A stretch of 64,000 bases of DNA, from assembly GCA_026874595.1 (NCBI GenBank), contig CM049320.1, positions 12,649,488-12,713,487 on the forward strand, in the 5' to 3' direction. Below the pieces are notes generated by a model. It searched no databases, was not told the origin of the DNA, and saw only the letters and a program-made list of their open reading frames with translations. The stretch is from Sipunculus nudus. Taxonomy: Eukaryota; Annelida; Sipuncula; Golfingiida; Sipunculidae. Of this stretch, positions 29,603 through 63,425 are shown one piece after another (within the stretch, counting starts at the first letter, position 1; each line of letters begins with the position of its first letter). The position numbers and the translations under genes were made by a program.

Positions 29603-29860
29603 GTAGCAGTTAAGAAAGCAGTTAGCAAATCAGGTTAGATAGCAGTTAACAAGACAGGTTAAGAAAGCAGTTAGCAAGTCAGGTTAGATAGCAGTTAAAA
29701 AGACAGGTTAAGAAAGCAGTTAGCAAGTCAGGTTAAGAAAGCAGTAAGCAAGTCAGATTAAGAAAGCAGTTAGCAAGTCAGGTTAAGAAAGCAGTTAGCA
29801 TGACAGGTTAAGAAAGCAGTTAGCAAGTCAGATTAAGAAAGCAGTTAGCAAGACAGGTTA
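29603..29860. repeat. 25-bp minisatellite, about 10 copies
   Basis: The unit is close to GTTAAGAAAGCAGTTAGCAA followed by GTCAG (25 bp). The early units alternate between a GTTAGATAGCAG form and a GTTAAGAAAGCAG form, giving a 50-bp higher-order period; later units are homogeneous. This indicates expansion by unequal exchange or slippage. It lies within Eph intron 1. Confidence 0.95.
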
Positions 29861-54800: not shown

Positions 54801-56622
54801 GGGTGTATACAGGATTATTACAGGTATTAAGGGGGCAGCCACATTTTGAGCTTGGTGGTCCCAGCATGGTTGACCTGTTCTATTGGGATATTCTGACAGG
54901 GCAGCTGCCGAGACAGGGAGCTCACAACATGTATCAGCGGGTCATCGGCAGATTAATACGGCTTGGTCAGATGTTAAAATCAGAACAGTGGCCTTTGGTC
55001 ACACAGACAGGAACCATTGTTCAGCCCAGCAGTGAATGATCACACTTCTTCTAGTTGGCTGGATTAATTCAGGATCAGCCAATGGCATGTGCTGTATTTA
55101 ACCTGAAGGGCCACCTGGCCCAGATTAAATTAGCCTCTCTCATTAATGTCTCGGTGGCTTTTTGTCCAGACAACCACCAGAAATAATGTATGCCTGGATT
55201 TAGCCGTCATTACTCGCTATTGTTGTAACAACACACAGTGGGTAGACTACTGAGGATAAAGAATCTGCCGGCTCTTCTGCTGGTATTGTTACGATTACAA
55301 TGGCCAGTAGCACCAGGACAAATCAAGAAATCCAAGGTTACCATAACAATCACCCCACGAACCGACACCTTAACCTGGCAGTGTGAAAATGTGATTTACA
55401 ATCGATAAAAATCAACTTATATTCAGGTCAGGTTTAGGCTGGTTGATTCTGGGAATGAAGGCCGGAGGCTGAAACAGATGGAAAGCTGAGTTAGCGAGAT
55501 TTGCCATGTATCGCATGTTTCTGTCAATCGTGTATATGACAAAAACGGGATTGCCCAGTCAGTTTGTGGAGTTATTGGTGCACAGTATTGCATTGTGATG
55601 CGGAAGGCCGACACTCAGGCGACTCCATTGATTCTGACTCCAAATCCACGGAATTGTTTATGAAGTGATCTGGACATTTTTTGTGTCTCAGAATCTTGCT
55701 GGGGCTGGTCCGTTCATGCATGACTAATTTATTTGCAGGTGGTCACAATGATTGATGGGGCTGCTTACCCACCAGGCTTTAAAACACCTTTGTTAGTGGT
55801 CGTTCAGGAAGCTCCTTTACCCAGGGATGCCTGTATAGACCAGGTTACAGTCCCCGGTACCCTGGGTTGGCAGTACAGAGGGGATTACGCTATATTTGAT
55901 AATCATGCTGTAGGCTTTTTACTGCTGGCTGTATTTATGGAACAGAGATAGTATTTGCGGATTTATGCTTTATATACTTAAATTCAGCGACATGGTGGCC
56001 AATCAATTTGCTGGAGGGATGCGAAGAAATGATTGTCCCTTTGTGTTATTGATTTAGATTTTTGTATTATTAATGCAGTTTGATCCTGGTAGAATTAAAT
56101 AATGCTCCATCATTCAGTTTTTGTCATGTATTGAATAATATTAAACTCATATTAATGTAGTAAAGTTGAAATTGAGTTTGTATGTGTTAACTCTCTGTGA
56201 CTACAGGGAGAAATGTTAAAGGGGGCCCAATCACCTATCTTATCATTATAAACTAAAGCTAATCCCTTGGAGCTTTCATAAAAAATAGACCAGAAAACGG
56301 GTATCACTGCACACAAGCTGCATGTTTTGCTTATATCAACGTGTTTATAATATGTCGGGGCCCGCTGAAATAATCAAAACATGGGCATCTGGCAGCAAAT
56401 TGGATAAACCAGAGCTTTGCAAATGACATTTTGCAACAAATGATCTTTCTGCCTCTGCATATATTCAACCTACCATCTTAGGTTACATGTATTTCCCATT
56501 TGTCAACATTGCTGTGTTTACAAACATGTTGATAAACAAGTTCACATATCCTTCGTGAAGGCCATTCAAGAACTTTTCACAACCAAAATTACCCTTAGAT
56601 CACAAATTATACACAGATTAAA
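51838..56622 (+). other. EPH: Eph intron 2, middle part
   Basis: No exon was found on either strand. I looked on the + strand for Eph exon 3 and on the - strand for the missing M9-M10 end of the flippase. Open frames at 54746-55039 and 55733-55951 have no domain. There is a poly-C run at 53419-53434 and an AAT-rich low-complexity patch at about 54626-54665. Confidence 0.6.
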
Positions 56623-57530
56623 CTAGAATATGGGTAGTCGACAAGCGACTACGTGTATCCGCCAAAATCAGAGTGGAACAGGTGAAGTGAAGCATGGATT
56701 GAGTGGCAAGGGGAAATAGAGTGAAGTGTTGCATATTAGCATGGATGTCTACAGCCCAAATGTGTATGTAGGTTGCGCCAACTACCACAAAATCCAGAAA
56801 GCTGTCAAAGTTGTATACATATGCAAAATTTAAGGCAGATAAGTCAAACCACTACATGTATATGAGTGATTTTAGCCAATGGCAGACAAACAGATGGATG
56901 CCGCGCAAAAATGGTTGCAGGTGGCACCACCAGTTTTTGGTATGATAAAGAGCTATGTGAGATCTATACACATGCAAAATTTTGGCCCAATCGGTCAAAC
57001 GGTTCCCCAAGATATGAGCTTGGATGTCTGCAGCGTAAACTAGAATGTAGGTGGCTCCACCTGTCATAAAATCAAGAGAGCTGTCCAGGATGTATAAACC
57101 TGCAAAATTTTAGGCAGATATGTCAAACTACTGCCGAGATATGAGTGATTTTATCCCACAGCAGACAAACAGACGGATGCTGTGCAAAAATGGCTGCAGC
57201 TAGTGCCACCAGTTTTTGTGTATGTTATAAAGCTATCCAAGGGCTACATTTGTACAAATTTTTTTTCCTGATCAGTCAAATGGTTCCCGAGATATGTGAA
57301 TTTATGTGTGGAAACAGACACACAAACGGACGCTGGGCAGAGAGGAAAGGTCAGAGGTCAAGGCCAAGTGGTTAGGCACCAGTTAACATGTGACCCGATA
57401 TTTGGTGTAAGTTTCGGAAATATTTGTCGAGTAGTCTCAGAGGAGTTCTCCAGAAATGAACGCGGCGACGGCAGCGGCAGAACTTGGTAAAAAACATAGT
57501 ATCCGCAGAACTTCGTTTTTGCGAATACAA
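56623..57530 (+). mobile_element. Copy B of the unclassified element
   Basis: The left end reads ACTAGAATATGGGTAGTCG and includes a short hairpin (GTAGTCGACAAGCGACTAC) followed by GTGTATCCGCC. The middle has about two internal units recurring every 272 bp or so (ATGAGTGATTTTA at about 56862 and 57140). The right part is GC-rich (CGGCGACGGCAGCGGCAG), and the right end is ATAGTATCCGCAGAACTTCG plus its imperfect inverse. A perfect DR1 (AGGTCAGAGGTCA) lies at 57348-57360. It is in the same orientation as copy C and opposite to copy A. No transposase gene is present. Confidence 0.85.
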
Positions 57531-58109
57531 ATATTATCCAAATCAATAAAGATTTAACTCTAATATACAAGTTAATTAAGTATATCAAGTATACAAATCA
57601 ATATGTAAGCCATTATGTGTTGATCAGTAATATCTGAGGTACATCAATCAATCATAAATCACTTATAAGATTACAAACATTAAAATCCTGGATGCTTTAT
57701 ACAAATTCCGTAATGCGCCAATTGATGACACACAGTTTTGTTACAATACAATAACATCTGCCAAAATAGTGCTTTCAGTCAGCAAAGCCAAAAACAGTCT
57801 AAAATAATCTATTTAAAATAATAATAAATCTAAGTTAATCAAACTTATAATAGCAGTACAAAAAGCAAAATAAACTTATTCATAAAGTGTTCAAAACTGT
57901 ACTGTACTACAAGATACATTAATATCATATTCCTTAATTATGAAACATACTTGTTGAAGTGCTTTATGTAGTTAACTTTACAGTAAAACAGTAATAGTGT
58001 GTGATGGTGTATGTGTGTGTGTAGACATTGTGTACTACAGTAATTTCTGTTTATTTCCAAACATACACTCATGTTCCATTAGCCTGCTTATAAATTCATA
58101 TGTACTCAC
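57531..58109. other. AT-rich stretch between element copy B and the last flippase exon
   Basis: No continuation of the flippase is visible here on the - strand. If the donor of the exon at 58110-58171 is not used, the reading frame continues 24 codons and stops at 58035. Confidence 0.5.
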
Positions 58110-58171
58110 CGTGTATACTATATTTCCCAGGAATACATAATCTCCTATTTGCCCATTCTTAAAAGCAACAT
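58110..58171 (-). CDS. ATP8A: ATP8A-type P4-ATPase, exon encoding the M7-M8 loop and start of M8
   Basis: The exon completes an Asp codon split with the previous exon and encodes DVAFKNGQIGDYVFLGNIVYT. The GDYVFLGNIVYT part matches the (S/T)DYLF(V/L)GN(I/F)VYT motif at the start of transmembrane helix M8 in ATP8A1 and ATP8A2. It has a CATTCCAG acceptor and a GTGAGT donor and ends in phase 0. In the family the next residues would complete M8 (a VVVTVCLKAGLE-like stretch), but no such exon was found on the - strand at lower coordinates. This is therefore the last recognised exon. Reading through the donor gives 24 extra residues and a stop, which would produce a protein truncated in M8. Confidence 0.92.
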
Positions 58172-58855
58172 CTGGAATGGCAGGAATCACATTAAAATAA
58201 TAATAATAATAATAATGAAACATGACATCTATGTCTTTTGCAATTATGACCATTTAATTATGACATCTCACTCTGAAGACACTATCTTATAATTATGTAC
58301 AGTGAACATGCTCGAATCATATATCAAAATGTCAGTATACAAACTACTCTCTAAGGTCCAGCTTGTCTTCTGGGCCTGGACAAAGAGTGTTAGTATTATG
58401 TATTGTTACATAAACATTTTGCTCAGGGAAAAACACTGAACCCATGTCCATGGCACAAATGTCCAGCATTCCAACTGCTTTGCTAGAAATGCAAGCTTCA
58501 CAAGCAAGACAGTTCAGTCTGCTTTTATATGCACCCTGTAACAGGTTGTACATGAAAAGTCCACAGACATCACTTCCTAGTCAAGTCTACCTAACGTCTA
58601 TAAAAAGTCTCATTATTAAATCCCCCGGCAGGGAGCCACCATATACCACAACAACTATAAGTACAAAGCATTAGTAATTTCTCAATATCAAATATATACA
58701 ACCATTTAACAGTTAGCATGAAAAACTTGTAATTGTGGCTAAGGATAAACGTCTGGCAGTATTTCCATGGTCCACAAAACCTGCCAGTAAATGCTGTATT
58801 TGTCAGATACTGTTCCATTATTGTTACTTGTTCTTCACAATAATTTCAGTCTTAC
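58172..58855 (-). other. ATP8A: ATP8A intron between M7 and M8 exons
   Basis: 684 bp bounded by GTAAG and CAG. An (AAT)n tract lies near 58196-58217, close to the acceptor. Open frames at 58344-58674 are intronic and domain-free. Confidence 0.8.
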
Positions 58856-58934
58856 CTTTTTCTAATGAGAGCAGTGTCATCCAGAAAAGTAATATGGAAT
58901 GGTATATAGCATTCAACATCCACAACCAGAAGAT
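58856..58934 (-). CDS. ATP8A: ATP8A-type P4-ATPase, exon encoding transmembrane helix M7
   Basis: The 79-nt exon encodes IFWLWMLNAIYHSILLFW followed by MTLLSLEK and one base of the next codon. It matches the M7 region of ATP8A1/2 (VFWxxxLNxLxHSxxLFW). The acceptor is CTTTCAG and the donor GTAAGAC. The helix is hydrophobic and intact, with the Asn and His-Ser positions of the family conserved. It joins the preceding exon in phase 0 after FNVK and the next in phase 1. Confidence 0.95.
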
Positions 58935-59894
58935 CTGAAAGATTTACACTATGTGTCAGCATTATGTAAACTCACAAACAGTGCTCCACTAGTGGAATTC
59001 TAAGTGCTCTTACACAATAATTACCATGGAAATGCTCAGTTACACAATTACACATATTTTCATGCAAGTGCAATCATCAAATATGTTCATGTGATCATGA
59101 GTTGAAGCACTCGGCCATGGCCTGGTGAGAATGTAAAGGCCTGCTTATTGAAACATGCACAGATCTTTTGCCAAGTCTGTGTGACTTTGGGAAAGTAATG
59201 ATCTGACCTTTTCCTTCAAGGCAAAGATTACAGCTTCCACAGGGGAGCTTTCTCAGGGGTGTACGCTTGAGGACCAGTTTTGTGATGATTTGGGTACTCA
59301 CTTTGACATTGAACAACCTTGAGTTTGGTGATGATTTTGGTACTCACTTTGACATTGAACAACTCTAAGTTTTATGATGATTTGGGTACTCACTTTGACA
59401 TTGAACAACCCTGAGTTTTACGATGATTTTGGTACTCAGTTTGACACTGAATGACTCTGACTTTTGTGATGATTTGGGTACTCACTTAAACATTGAACTA
59501 CTATAGTTTTGTGAAGATTAAGGTACTTACTTTGACATTGAACAACTCTAAGTTTTATGATGATTTGGGTACTCACTTTGACATTGAACAACCCTGAGTT
59601 TTACGATGATTTTGGTACTCAGTTTGACACTGAATGACTCTGACTTTTGTGATGATTTGGGTACTCACTTAAACATTGAACTACTATAGTTTTGTGAAGA
59701 TTAAGGTACTTACTTTGACATTGAACGACTGAGTTTTGTGATGATTTTGGTACTCACTTTGACAATGAACAACCCTGAGTTTTACGATGATTTTGGTACT
59801 CAGTTTGACACTGAATGACTCTGACTTTTGTGATGATTTGGGTACTCACTTAAACATTGAACTACTATAGTTTTGTGAAGATTAAGGTACTTAC
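58935..59894 (-). other. ATP8A: ATP8A intron carrying the 46-bp junction-derived array
   Basis: 960 bp. The authentic donor is GTAAGTACC at 59894. The first 620 bases or so, in the direction of transcription, are tandem copies of the junction itself; the rest is unique. Reading past the authentic donor meets a TAG after nine codons. Confidence 0.85.
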
Positions 59895-59930
59895 TTTGAC
59901 ATTGAACGACTCTGAGTTTTGTGATGATTT
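59274..59930. repeat. 46-bp tandem array built from an exon-intron junction, 14 copies
   Basis: The repeat unit is about 46 bp. Each unit contains, on the - strand, a TCATCACAAAACTCAGAGT-like stretch, TTCAATGTCAAA and GTRAGTACC. The highest-coordinate unit is the real 3' end of the ATP8A exon at 59895-60017 plus its donor; the other 13 lie in the intron. Units carrying CTGAGT instead of GTGAGT recur at about 59431, 59614 and 59795, and TTTAAGTGAGT units at about 59477, 59660 and 59841. This reveals a 4-unit higher-order repeat of about 183 bp present three times. Eleven of the 14 copies keep an intact GTRAGT. Confidence 0.93.
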
Positions 59931-60017
59931 GTAGAGCTGTGGCAGTCTGAGCATGGTCTCTGCCTTACAGTGATGGTCAAACAGACCAAGGGCGAGAGGT
60001 GGTGCAGCCGTAATTAC
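59895..60017 (-). CDS. ATP8A: ATP8A-type P4-ATPase, exon encoding M6 and the M6-M7 loop
   Basis: This 123-nt exon encodes 41 residues containing TAAPPLALGLFD, CKAETMLRLPQLYKSSQN and ESFNVK. The family equivalent is the FTAxPPxxLGxFxxxC stretch of M6 followed by the conserved loop with MLRxPQLYKxxQN and FNTK. It has a CTGCAG acceptor and a GTAAGT donor, and both ends are in phase 0. Joined to the preceding exon the protein reads LFNVVITAAPPLALG, which aligns without gap to LYNV(M/I)FTA(M/L)PP of ATP8A. The last 36 or so bases of the exon are the founding unit of the 46-bp array in the next intron, so its coding end and donor are shared with 13 decoys. Confidence 0.96.
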
Positions 60018-60342
60018 CTGCAGAACATGCAAACCTGTAGTACACTAATGTCCCAATACTCTATACTTACATCAGCATTATTTAATTATTTAGTGTCATT
60101 TTACAATTAACTTTTTCCGCAATTCTGGTTGTGTCAATCATTTAAAGTTATTACTTAATATATACACTGGACTTTATATGATTAAACAACATCAGACTGG
60201 AATCTGCTGATTTTAACCTTCTGAATTCTGTTAACCCTTTTCAGCCTCTAAGAAATAAACCCACCAAAAAAACCTGTTGTTATTATCCTGGGTAAATTTG
60301 ATCATGTGCAGCTACTGAAAACACCACATATAAATTACTTAC
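60018..60342 (-). other. ATP8A: ATP8A intron between M5-M6 loop and M6 exons
   Basis: 325 bp with GTAAGT donor and CTGCAG acceptor. No array or other feature is seen. Confidence 0.8.
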
Positions 60343-60417
60343 CACATTGAATAATGAGATGGACCATCTCTCAAAAGCAATCTGACCAGAAAAACCACTC
60401 ATGATGGCAAACCAAAA
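60343..60417 (-). CDS. ATP8A: ATP8A-type P4-ATPase, exon encoding the M5-M6 loop
   Basis: The 75-nt exon encodes FWFAIMSGFSGQIAFERW followed by SISLFNV. Family members read (I/L)[24 protein letters not shown], so SGFSGQ and FERW are diagnostic of the ATP8A clade rather than ATP8B (where the same place reads CGFSAQ). The acceptor is TTGACAG and the donor GTAAGT; both ends are in phase 0. This segment is the short exoplasmic loop between M5 and M6 and the start of M6. Confidence 0.95.
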
Positions 60418-60902
60418 CTGTCAATACAAAACAGCTTTCATTGAAATCCACAGTAATTATATGTAGGACCTTTTATCACTGACAGGTATGATGTAAATAA
60501 AAGCATCATGTATATGATGCAGAGACATGTTTTATGAAATTTTATGATACAGAGACTGATGTATATATACCTGAGTGTATACTAGGGTTAACCTACTAAC
60601 ATTATGTATAATATAAACATGCATTTGTTCTCATGTTATGATGTAGACTTGTTTTTGTTTACATATGTATATAGTACAAACATGTTTTTTCTCACATCAT
60701 GTGCGACTGGAACACATTTTTCGCTTACTTGTATGATGTAGACTTTTTTATACTCATGTTTAATAAATAAACTTATGCAAGTGTAATATATATCTTCTGT
60801 ACTTGCATGTATGCTTTAGACATTGTTTTGGTGCTCACCAGTATATCAGATGCATAATTTGGTTATAACATATATGATGCAGACAGATGTATTTGTACTC
60901 AC
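60418..60902 (-). other. ATP8A: ATP8A intron carrying the second junction-derived array
   Basis: 485 bp. The donor GTGAGTAC (60902) is followed by degenerate tandem copies related to the exon end and donor (see the repeat entry). The acceptor is TTGACAG. Confidence 0.75.
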
Positions 60903-60925
60903 ATGTATGACATAGAGACAGATGT
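60500..60925. repeat. Degenerate tandem array related to an exon end and donor
   Basis: On the + strand, words of the form TACTCACATGTATGA...GACAGATGTTTTT recur every 37-40 bp or so. Examples are TATATGATGCAGACAGATGT at about 60871, GTATGCTTTAGACATTGTTTT at about 60809, GTATGATGTAGACTTTTTTA at about 60731, and TTATGATGTAGACTTGTTTTT at about 60636. Several copies keep a donor-like complement (CTCAC, CTTAC). The unit overlaps the real 3' end and donor of the ATP8A exon at 60903-61013. It is more diverged than the 46-bp array, so unit boundaries are approximate. Confidence 0.65.
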
Positions 60926-61013
60926 TTTTATAAAAACAGTATAAGATCAGCTTTGTCAGTCTGCTGTAGCACCATGCTCCATGTACCAGCAATAGTTTGT
61001 TCAGGTATCGGAA
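60903..61013 (-). CDS. ATP8A: ATP8A-type P4-ATPase, exon encoding helix M5
   Basis: The 111-nt exon encodes 37 residues: [19 protein letters not shown], then [18 protein letters not shown]. This is the M5 region of P4-ATPases (FRxLxKLLLVHGxWxYxRxxKxILYxFYKN). The Lys of FYKN corresponds to the M5 lysine (K873 in bovine ATP8A2) known to matter for phosphatidylserine transport, so a functional origin is likely. The acceptor is CTTGTAG and the donor GTGAGTAC; both ends are in phase 0. The final His takes the place of the Glu usual in ATP8A (LYIIE). The preceding exon should end in a Ser-Asp-Tyr-x-Ile-Ala-Gln motif; it is not found between here and the window end. Confidence 0.95.
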
Positions 61014-61167
61014 CTACAAGTAAAACATGGATCTTATCACCATCTGTTTATCACTCTAGATCTGAAACTGTGTCTCTTTGACATGTGTATGTCACTGAAG
61101 TGGGTTACTCTGAATCTGTTACCTTCTATGAATTACACATGAAATTACTATGCTATTCTGAGATAAA

Positions 61168-62939
61168 ACTAGAATACGGGTAGTCGCTTGACGGGTAGTC
61201 GACAAGCGACTACGTGTATCCGCCTAAATCAGAGTGGAACGGGTGAAGTGAGGCATGGATTAAGTGGCAAGGGGAAATAGAGTGAAGTGTTGCATATTAG
61301 CATGGATGTCTGCAGCCAAATTGTGTATGAAGGTTGCCACCCCCCCCCCCCCCCCCCCCCCGCACCACAAAATCCAGAGGGCCGTCCCAGTTGTATACAT
61401 ATGCAAAATTTAAGGCAGATAATTCAAACCACTACATGTACATGAGTGATTATAGCCCGTGGCAGACAATCAGATGGATGCTGAGCAAAAATGGTTGCAG
61501 GTGACGGCACCAGTTTTGCATATGATAAAGAGCTATGTGAGAACTATACACATGCAAAACTTTGGCCCAATCGTTCAAACGGTTCCCAAGATATGAGCTT
61601 GGAAGTCTGCTGCATAAACTAGAATGCAGGTGGCTCCACCTGTCATAAAATCAAGAGAGCTGTCGATGTATAAACCTGCAAAATTTTAGCCAGATATGTC
61701 AAACCACTGCCGAGATATGAGTGATTTTATCCCATGGCAGACAAACAGACAGGAGCTGTGCAAAAATGGCTGCAGGTGGCACCACCAGTTTTGCGTATGT
61801 TATAAAGCTCTCCAAGGGCTACATTTGTGCAAAAAAATTTTCCTGATCGGTCAAACGGTTCCCGAGATATGAGCTTGGATGTCTGCAGCATAAACGTGAA
61901 TGTAGGTGGCGCCACCTGTCATAAAATCAGAAAAGCTATCCAGGATGTATACGCATGCCGAATTTCAGGTGAATTAGTCAAGTCATTGCAGAGATATGAG
62001 TGATTTTAACCCAAGGCAGACAAACAGATGGACACTGTGCAAACATGGTTGCAGGTGGCGCCACCATTTTTTGTGTATGTTATAAAGCTCTCCAAGGGCT
62101 ACATTTGTGCAAAAAAATTTTCCTGATCTGTCAAACGGTTCCCGAGATATGAGCTTGGATGTCTGCAGCGTAAACGTGAATGTAGGTGGCGCCACCTGTC
62201 ACAAAATCAGAAAAGCTATCCAGGATGTATACGCATGCCAAATTTCAGGTGAATTAGTCAAGTCACTGCAGAGATATGAGTGATTTTAACCCAAGGCAGA
62301 CGAACAGATGGACACTGTGCAAACATGGTTGCAGGTGGCGCCACCATTTTTTGTGTATGTTATAAAGCTCTCCAAGGGCTACATTTGTGCAAAAAAATTT
62401 TCCTGATCGGTCAAATGGTTCCCGAGATATGAGCTTGGATGTCTGCAGCGTAAACGTGAATGTAGGTGGCGCCACCTGTCACAAAATCAGAAAAGCCATC
62501 CAGGATGTATACGCATGCCAAATTTCAGATGAATTTGTCAAGTCACTGCAGAGATATGAGTGATTTTAACCTAAGGCAGACAAACAGATGGACACTGTGC
62601 AAACATGGTTGCAGGTGGCGCCACCATTTTTTGTGTATGTTATAAAGCTCTCCAAGGGCTACATTTGTGCAAAAAAATTTTCCTGATCCGTCAAACGGTT
62701 CCCGAGATATGTGGGTTTATGTGTGGAAACAGACGCACAAACGGACGCAGAGCGCGGAGGAAAGGTCAGAGGTCAAAACAAAATCGGGGCGCAGCAGTTC
62801 ACATGTGACCCGAACATAATCCCGGGTTTCGTAAAATTCCGCCCAGCGGTTACGGAGGAGTTCTCCGGAAACCTACGCGGCGGCGGCGGCGTGCAGCTGA
62901 AAACATAGTATCCGCAAAACTCAGTTTTGGCGGATACAA
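61168..62939 (+). mobile_element. Copy C of the unclassified element, expanded internal repeats
   Basis: The left end reads ACTAGAATACGGGTAGTCG and forms a hairpin (GTAGTCGCTTG ... CAAGCGACTAC). The right end is ATAGTATCCGCAAAACT followed by AGTTTTGGCGGATAC, a near-perfect hairpin. Between them lie a poly-C run (61340-61361), four to five internal units of about 280 bp, a GC-rich CGGCGGCGGCG segment and a perfect DR1 at 62763-62775. It is nearly twice the length of copies A and B because of extra units. It encodes no recognised protein. Confidence 0.87.
61441..62705. repeat. About 280-bp tandem repeat inside element copy C
   Basis: The landmark GAGATATGAGTGATTTTA recurs at 61712, 61991, 62271 and 62551, and a degenerate form occurs near 61441. 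The units starting at 61991 and 62271 are almost identical over their whole length, so this amplification is recent. Each recent unit carries two GGTGGCGCCACC palindromes (for example 62054-62065 and 62185-62196). Identical 70-codon open frames in successive units are a by-product of the duplication. Confidence 0.93.
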
Positions 62940-63425
62940 TTATACACAGAGGTAGCCAGAAATCACATAAATTATTTTTCAAAAGTTAGGTGATTGGGCA
63001 CCTTTAATATTTAGTTACATTACAAGATTACAGAAATAAATCTATATTTTTACAGGTATCTTATATATAATTTAATGAACCACACCTGGCTCTCCTTAAC
63101 CATGGTTAAGTAGTACTAAGTGGGAGTACCAAATGTCTTTCTGAAGCCAGCATGATACATGTCTCAAATTAGACTGAGTTAGCCCTGAAATATGGGGATC
63201 TCAAAATCCTGTCATAGTGTTTCCTGTGATTGAGAAGTAATTTTATTTAAATCTCTTATTGATTTATGTTAACTGTGTTTAGCTGTTGTATCAGTTCTTA
63301 TTAGAATCAGAAATTGTATTAGTTCTTATCAGAGGCATTGTCACTTGCCGGAGCCGTTAATAATCATAATTGTCCTGATTGATATAGATATTATTTATCA
63401 GTATATACATATACCGTTTTTGATT
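62940..63425 (+). other. Eph intron 2 beyond element copy C, nothing recognised
   Basis: AT-rich DNA. I searched for the next upstream flippase exon (ending in the Ile-Ala-Gln motif) and for Eph exon 3 and saw neither. Confidence 0.5.

What the first reader, a model, noticed from the sequence alone, without database searches (positions are those of the whole stretch)
59274..60017. An intronic minisatellite amplified from its own exon-intron junction, making a ladder of decoy splice donors
The 46-bp array in this ATP8A intron is not independent DNA. Its terminal unit is the last 36 or so coding bases of the exon plus the real GTAAGT donor, and 13 more copies follow in the intron. Eleven of 14 copies keep GTRAGT; three periodically spaced copies have lost it (CTGAGT). 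Using any decoy would extend the exon into a TAG nine codons after the real junction, so decoys act as potential truncation switches. The U1-binding site is thus repeated at 46-bp intervals next to the authentic one.
Basis: partly seen in the sequence, partly recalled or inferred. Interest (0 to 1): 0.85.

Follow-up and report, generated by a model that had tools for sequence, protein, structure and literature searches.

The report
Splice-junction minisatellite carried by a transposon

Summary
At 59276-59931, 14 units of 44-46 bp lie in tandem; the first is the last 36 coding bases of an ATP8A exon plus its GTAAGT donor. The exon part is conserved protein sequence, so the array grew out of the junction. 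The three dead copies (CTGAGT) are one mutation multiplied inside a 183-bp higher-order repeat.

The setting was misread. The window holds only five ATP8A exons, between two copies of an abundant transposon. The parent gene, with exons on both sides, is on contig C10 of the same genome; its non-array introns differ by 1.9%. It carries the same junction array with 11 units, so the array predates the capture, and the two arrays have rearranged since. At least four more arrays in the parent match other exon edges (two donors, two acceptors). In two genes, 5 of 14 arrays (the given one left out) straddle an exon edge, against 0.5 expected.

The class is known: amphioxus "mirages"; human CBS and F7 repeats. 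I found no sign that decoys are conserved or act as truncation switches. Near-equal decoys suggest choice of the exon-proximal site; no RNA was available.

The parts
59276..59931 (-). junction-derived minisatellite: 14 units of 44-46 bp and a partial one, in three blocks of about 183 bp plus two older units
59887..59930 (-). unit 0: last 36 coding bases of the exon plus authentic donor GTAAGTAC (G of GT at 59894)
59294..59886 (-). 13 intronic units; 10 keep GTRAGT, units 2, 6 and 10 read CTGAGT
59895..60017 (-). ATP8A exon (VITAAPPLALGLFDHHCKAETMLRLPQLYKSSQNSESFNVK) from which the array grew
60903..61013 (-). ATP8A exon
60343..60417 (-). ATP8A exon
58856..58934 (-). ATP8A exon after the array-bearing intron
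58110..58171 (-). last ATP8A exon present in the window
57535..61167 (-). captured ATP8A segment (five exons with introns), counterpart of C10:59953773-59958744 apart from a 1.29-kb insertion on C10 and the array
56622..57534 (+). transposon copy A with 280-bp inner repeats; a copy short of its first bases lies in the same intron of the parent gene
61168..62943 (+). transposon copy B, same family and orientation; similarity to the parent gene ends where it begins

Best explanation
The array is a minisatellite seeded by tandem duplication across an exon-intron junction of an ATP8A-type lipid flippase gene, a 'mirage'. It arose in the gene on contig C10. A transposon in a neighbouring intron then carried about 3.6 kb of adjacent gene DNA, five exons and the array included, to the window's place on C15. 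Since then the two arrays have rearranged separately: 14 units with a 183-bp block on C15, 11 units with paired 92-bp repeats on C10. Shown: junction origin, parent and fragment, transposon borders, different arrays. Inferred: growth by slippage or unequal crossover, and transport by read-through past the transposon's 3' end. In RNA (inferred only): in the parent gene the spliceosome uses the site next to the exon and passes over near-equal copies deeper in the intron, so the decoys are mostly tolerated by-products; use of a donor decoy of this array would bring in a stop codon. The fragment on C15 most likely has no coding function.
For: Exon-array identity, score 61 v at most 24 in 1000 random segments; exon end conserved in human ATP8A1 and yeast Drs2. 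Second locus on C10 with ATP8A exons upstream and downstream of the shared five (bait recalled from memory), same junction array with 11 units. Shared DNA ends at 61168 where a transposon copy starts, and on the left inside another copy whose 5' flank is not shared. Introns outside the array differ at 34 of 1791 positions while the arrays differ in number and order. Real donor 7.7 on a recalled matrix, 7 of 13 copies equal or higher; U1 pairing -5.3 v -5.3 or -5.4 for the live copies.
Against: No RNA evidence on splicing. The element was not classified and no transposase was looked for; the C10 copy of the element lacks its first bases, so the 5' border is seen on C15 only. Direction C10 to C15 rests on completeness of the C10 gene. 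That decoys are tolerated is argued from other cases, not shown here; on C10 alone 4 of 29 minimal changes hit the GT (P 0.036), which could mean that decoys are being removed.
Confidence: 0.85

Rival explanations
1. Truncation switch: the intronic donors are used at a regulated rate, adding the TAG and sending the transcript to decay, so that array length tunes the amount of flippase.
For: A TAG lies in every extension (same place in the parent); live copies match the real donor in strength.
Against: GT is not kept better than other positions and is lost in 4 of 10 intronic copies of the parent gene; unit number and order differ between copies that are about 1.9% apart; in amphioxus such arrays are reported not to disturb splicing (PMC3087553 passages).
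Confidence: 0.07
2. C15 is a working partial duplicate, a new gene built from five transmembrane exons, and not a dead fragment.
For: The five exons are open and their donors and acceptors are kept.
Against: Divergence is so low that openness says little; 2 of the 3 exon differences change an amino acid; no other ATP8A exon in the 124 kb examined.
Confidence: 0.05
3. Chance: this animal's introns are full of minisatellites, and some happen to touch an exon, without any preference for junctions.
For: Arrays cover 13.7% of the C10 gene and coverage does not peak at exon edges: 6.9% at 1-10 bp. Only two genes, both flippases, were tested in full.
Against: An array over an exon edge must have been seeded there; 4 of 11 on C10 v 0.40 expected (P 0.0005) and, without the given array but with C8, 5 of 14 v 0.50 (P 5e-5). 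This bears on the preference, not on the junction origin of this array, which stands either way.
Confidence: 0.3

Closest known systems
Amphioxus 'mirages' (Adh3, globins BflGb6 and BflGb9, also named for PGBD5 and troponin C)
   Same: Minisatellite-like tandem duplications spanning exon-intron boundaries at either end of an intron, units 10-160 bp, AG or GT in many copies, unstable length (PMC3087553 passages; PMC3902484 passage).
   Different: Host not identified here; the window's copy lies in a transposon-borne gene fragment; the parent gene has five clear ones, one with 109 unit cores. Normal splicing is reported there and untested here. The naming paper (Canestro 2002) was not held.
Human CBS 31-bp VNTR, c.1444_1467+7(16_21)
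   Same: Unit made of the last 24 coding bases plus 7 intronic ones with the donor, 16-21 copies (notation in PMC2630376 passages).
   Different: Polymorphic in people and donor side only; the 2001 paper on its effects was not held.
Human F7 intron 7, 37-bp repeats
   Same: [quoted passage not shown] oriented scanning is said to use only the most upstream site (PMC6627357 passages, citing Borensztajn 2006).
   Different: Donor side only. In the parent gene here acceptor arrays exist too, where the exon-proximal site is the most downstream one (inference). The primary paper was not held.
Gene fragments captured by transposons
   Same: Host exons with introns between termini of a dispersed element, parent gene elsewhere.
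   Different: Element class and mechanism not determined; a single captured copy was found.

Membership tests
Mirage (junction-spanning minisatellite) | tandem units spanning an exon-intron boundary, terminal unit containing the authentic site | tested here: met
   window; parent gene
Mirage (junction-spanning minisatellite) | either boundary of an intron can be duplicated | tested here: met
   in the parent gene: donors of exons 6, 17, 21; acceptors of exons 5, 25
Mirage (junction-spanning minisatellite) | unit length 10-160 bp | tested here: met
   44-46 bp here; 17-71 bp in the parent gene
Mirage (junction-spanning minisatellite) | unstable copy number | tested here: inconclusive
   14 units on C15 v 11 on C10 with other order; alleles and somatic variation not seen
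Mirage (junction-spanning minisatellite) | regular splicing undisturbed | not testable with these tools
   no RNA data
Mirage (junction-spanning minisatellite) | cephalochordate host | tested here: inconclusive
   host unnamed; GFP family PF01353 no match, but controls silent
Transposon-captured gene fragment | host gene segment bordered by termini of a dispersed element, parent gene elsewhere | tested here: met
Transposon-captured gene fragment | identified element class with transposase or known termini | not tested
   ends and inner repeats described only
Working ATP8A (P4-ATPase) gene | full set of exons at the locus | tested here: not met
   five exons in the window, no other in 124 kb of C15 (recalled bait)

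The most novel reading that the evidence does not exclude
In this genome minisatellites arise preferentially at exon-intron junctions, about ten times more often than random seeding gives, on donors and acceptors alike, so that some step tied to splice sites or to transcription through them seeds tandem DNA duplication; the ladders of near-equal splice sites that result are a natural test, across the genome, of how the spliceosome picks the exon-proximal site.
Probability: 0.4. Interest if true: 0.8.

Novelty: new member of a known kind. Interest (0 to 1): 0.5.

Why it matters
One gene with five clear junction arrays on both kinds of splice site, one of them with 109 unit cores that all keep GT, is a rich natural experiment on splice-site choice and on the proposed gain of introns from such repeats. 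The captured copy gives a matched pair, 1.9% apart outside the array, for measuring how fast such arrays rearrange with and without a working gene around them. If the excess at junctions holds genome-wide, it points to a seeding process that is called unclear in the one paper I saw on it (PMC3087553 passages).

Tried and rejected
Array as independent DNA copied into the exon: rejected, since the exon end is conserved protein sequence. Window locus as an intact ATP8A gene: rejected. C8 paralogue as an array-free outgroup: rejected; it is an ATP8B-like gene without this intron (name from my reading, no call) and bears junction arrays of its own. Array coverage by distance from exon edges shows no peak at the edge (6.9% at 1-10 bp, 13.7% of the gene); this speaks against an enrichment measured by coverage. 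I rely on where arrays were seeded, a choice made. Of 14 arrays compared with the exon edges, 6 match an edge beside them better than all 400 null segments, 1 is borderline (exon 27 donor, 1 of 400 equal) and 7 do not; the sixth (25 bp x 3.8 at exon 28) matches intron DNA just before the acceptor, has under 4.5 copies and is not counted among the clear ones. The 17-bp array at exon 17 lies 26 bp from its edge and is not counted as straddling. A two-copy junction repeat in a C4 myosin gene is matched by 62 of 2000 null pairs. Naming the host: PF01353, PF01581 and PF14830 gave no match, each with silent controls. Earthworm metallothionein and chicken MUC2 papers: in the passages I saw, not this kind. 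The 25-bp array at 29609: I saw no open exon beside it by eye.

Full report
What is in the window. The array at 59276-59931 is real. It has 14 units of 44-46 bp on the minus strand and a partial unit. Unit 0 is the end of an exon: 36 coding bases (KSSQNSESFNVK) plus GTAAGTAC. The exon peptide with its neighbours matches human ATP8A1 (6k7g, E 1.1e-32) and yeast Drs2 without a gap over this boundary, so the exon sequence is ancestral and the array derived. The exon-array match scores 61 against at most 24 in 1000 random segments of the window.

Inner order of the array. Units 0-3, 4-7 and 8-11 are three copies of a four-unit block of about 183 bp; units 1-3, 5-7 and 9-11 agree at 136 or 137 of 137 positions. 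The three CTGAGT copies are therefore one mutation multiplied with the block; the parent array has it too. GTAAGT occurs only in units 0, 4 and 8, the first of each block, so the junction itself seems to have taken part in the block duplications (inference).

Strength of the decoys. On a donor matrix recalled from memory the real donor (AAA|GTAAGT) scores 7.7, the lowest of the five donors in the fragment (9.0 to 10.9 for the others). Of 13 intronic copies 5 score 8.3, 2 equal it, 3 score 6.9 and 3 are dead. Energy of pairing with the U1 end is -5.3 for the real one, as for the donor of the first exon, and -5.3 or -5.4 for the live copies. Any extension meets the TAG nine codons on.

The window holds a fragment. 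The own genome (1.43 Gb, 153 contigs, unnamed) has two places like the array locus: the window on C15 and C10:59957004-59957598. C10 has a collinear series of about 30 ATP8A exon pieces from codon 242 of the human protein to near its end (bait recalled from memory; its N-terminal end was not fetched). C15 has five of them and no other in the 124 kb examined. The shared DNA is window 56645-61168, with a 1.29-kb insertion on C10 and differences in the array and in the transposon's inner repeats. At 61168 a copy of an abundant transposon begins (43 match rows, 7853 first-look candidates; copies on C1, C13 and C5 compared). On the left the shared part runs through another copy of the same family (56622-57534) whose 5' flank is not shared. 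The parent gene has that copy, short of its first bases, in the same intron. I read this as transport of the transposon with 3.6 kb of its 3' flank; the element was not classified. Outside the array the introns differ at 34 of 1791 aligned positions and the exons at 3 of 450, two of them amino-acid changes. The arrays differ far more: 14 against 11 units, a 183-bp block against paired 92-bp repeats. The array predates the capture and turns over faster than single bases change.

The parent gene has more such arrays. Among 11 arrays of at least 4.5 copies and period 15-120 in the C10 gene span, four straddle or abut an exon edge: acceptor of exon 5 (38 bp x 29), donor of exon 6 (30 bp x 108.7), donor of exon 21 (the 46-bp array, x 11), acceptor of exon 25 (71 bp x 20) (exon numbers are mine, edges set by eye). 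A fifth, 17 bp x about 40, has the unit ATACAG|GTAAAACC of the exon 17 donor and starts 26 bp from it. Each of these five matches its own edge better than all of 400 null segments. Unit cores found by likeness, which favours kept sites, hold GT in 109 of 109 (exon 6, the real site included) and 22 of 26 (exon 17) and AG in 29 of 29 (exon 5) and 20 of 20 (exon 25). An ATP8B-like gene on C8 has two junction arrays among four: RKRMS|GTAAGT, 44 bp x 7, and an exon end followed by GTAGGT, 23 bp x 6. A 9.9-kb stretch of a myosin gene on C4 has one array of 4.5 or more copies, not at an edge.

Is that more than chance? Seeds of the same lengths were placed at random in each gene, not wholly inside exons. 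C10 alone: 4 of 11 against 0.40 expected, P 0.0005; 3 or more, P 0.006. C10 without the given array plus C8: 5 of 14 against 0.50, P 5e-5 (1 of 20000); the C4 stretch was not in that test. Against: the two genes were not drawn at random, both are flippase genes, exon edges on C8 are approximate, the C10 exon list is incomplete, and array coverage by itself does not peak at exon edges.

Do the decoys do anything? Over 17 distinct units from both arrays, 4 of 37 changes inferred on a tree fall on the GT (P 0.076 for an excess; 4 of 32 by minimal count, P 0.049), and +1 is the only column with all four bases; by array it is 4 of 29 on C10 (P 0.036) and 1 of 21 on C15 (P 0.61). GT is alive in 7 of 11 units on C10 and 11 of 14 on C15. 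So there is no sign that the GT is kept, and a weak, uncorrected hint that the working gene loses it. Donor arrays have the real site most upstream, acceptor arrays most downstream; common to both is that it is next to the exon. Upstream-first scanning, cited for human F7 (PMC6627357 passages), fits the former only; choice by nearness to the exon fits both (inference; no RNA seen).

What is known. Junction-spanning minisatellites were named mirages in amphioxus, at either boundary, with AG/GT signals in many units and RT-PCR results that suggest regular splicing, and proposed as a source of new introns (PMC3087553 passages; PMC3902484 passage). Human CBS has a 31-bp repeat whose notation means 24 coding and 7 intronic bases (PMC2630376 passages) and human F7 a 37-bp one. 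So the class is known and this is a new member. In ten searches of an open-licence library I saw no listing on a transposon-borne mirage or on a genome-wide excess at junctions; the searches were not aimed at transposon-borne ones. Whether the host is a lancelet is open.

Noticed in passing
G000:C10:59984509-59987739: Array of a 30-bp unit, 108.7 copies, starting in the last coding bases of an ATP8A exon; 85 of 109 unit cores carry exactly the real donor CAG|GTATTA.
   Followed up: partly
G000:C8:11048688-11053886: ATP8B-like gene with three different successive exons for the same transmembrane stretch, perhaps mutually exclusive.
   Followed up: no
window 56622-57534 and 61168-62943: Two copies of a very abundant transposon with 280-bp inner tandem repeats and a hairpin-like 3' end (GTATCCGC...GCGGATAC); not classified.
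   Followed up: partly
G000:C10:59954042-59955328: 1.29-kb insertion in the parent gene with similar ends (CTAG...GATACAA) and no target duplication by eye, absent from the window.
   Followed up: no
G000:C4:13959005-13959080: A myosin exon end with its donor recurs once about 57 bp into the intron, perhaps a nascent junction array, but 62 of 2000 null pairs match as well.
   Followed up: partly
window 29609-29860: A second minisatellite of the window, 25 bp x 10.2, with no exon recognised beside it.
   Followed up: partly
L002 about 1300-1420: Long TA run beside the distal end of the parent's array, absent from the window's copy, where the oldest units are also missing.
   Followed up: no
G000:C2:44848559-44854198: Several myosin-head pieces covering nearly the same stretch of the domain follow each other, some in one 2288-residue open frame; perhaps alternative exons.
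   Followed up: no
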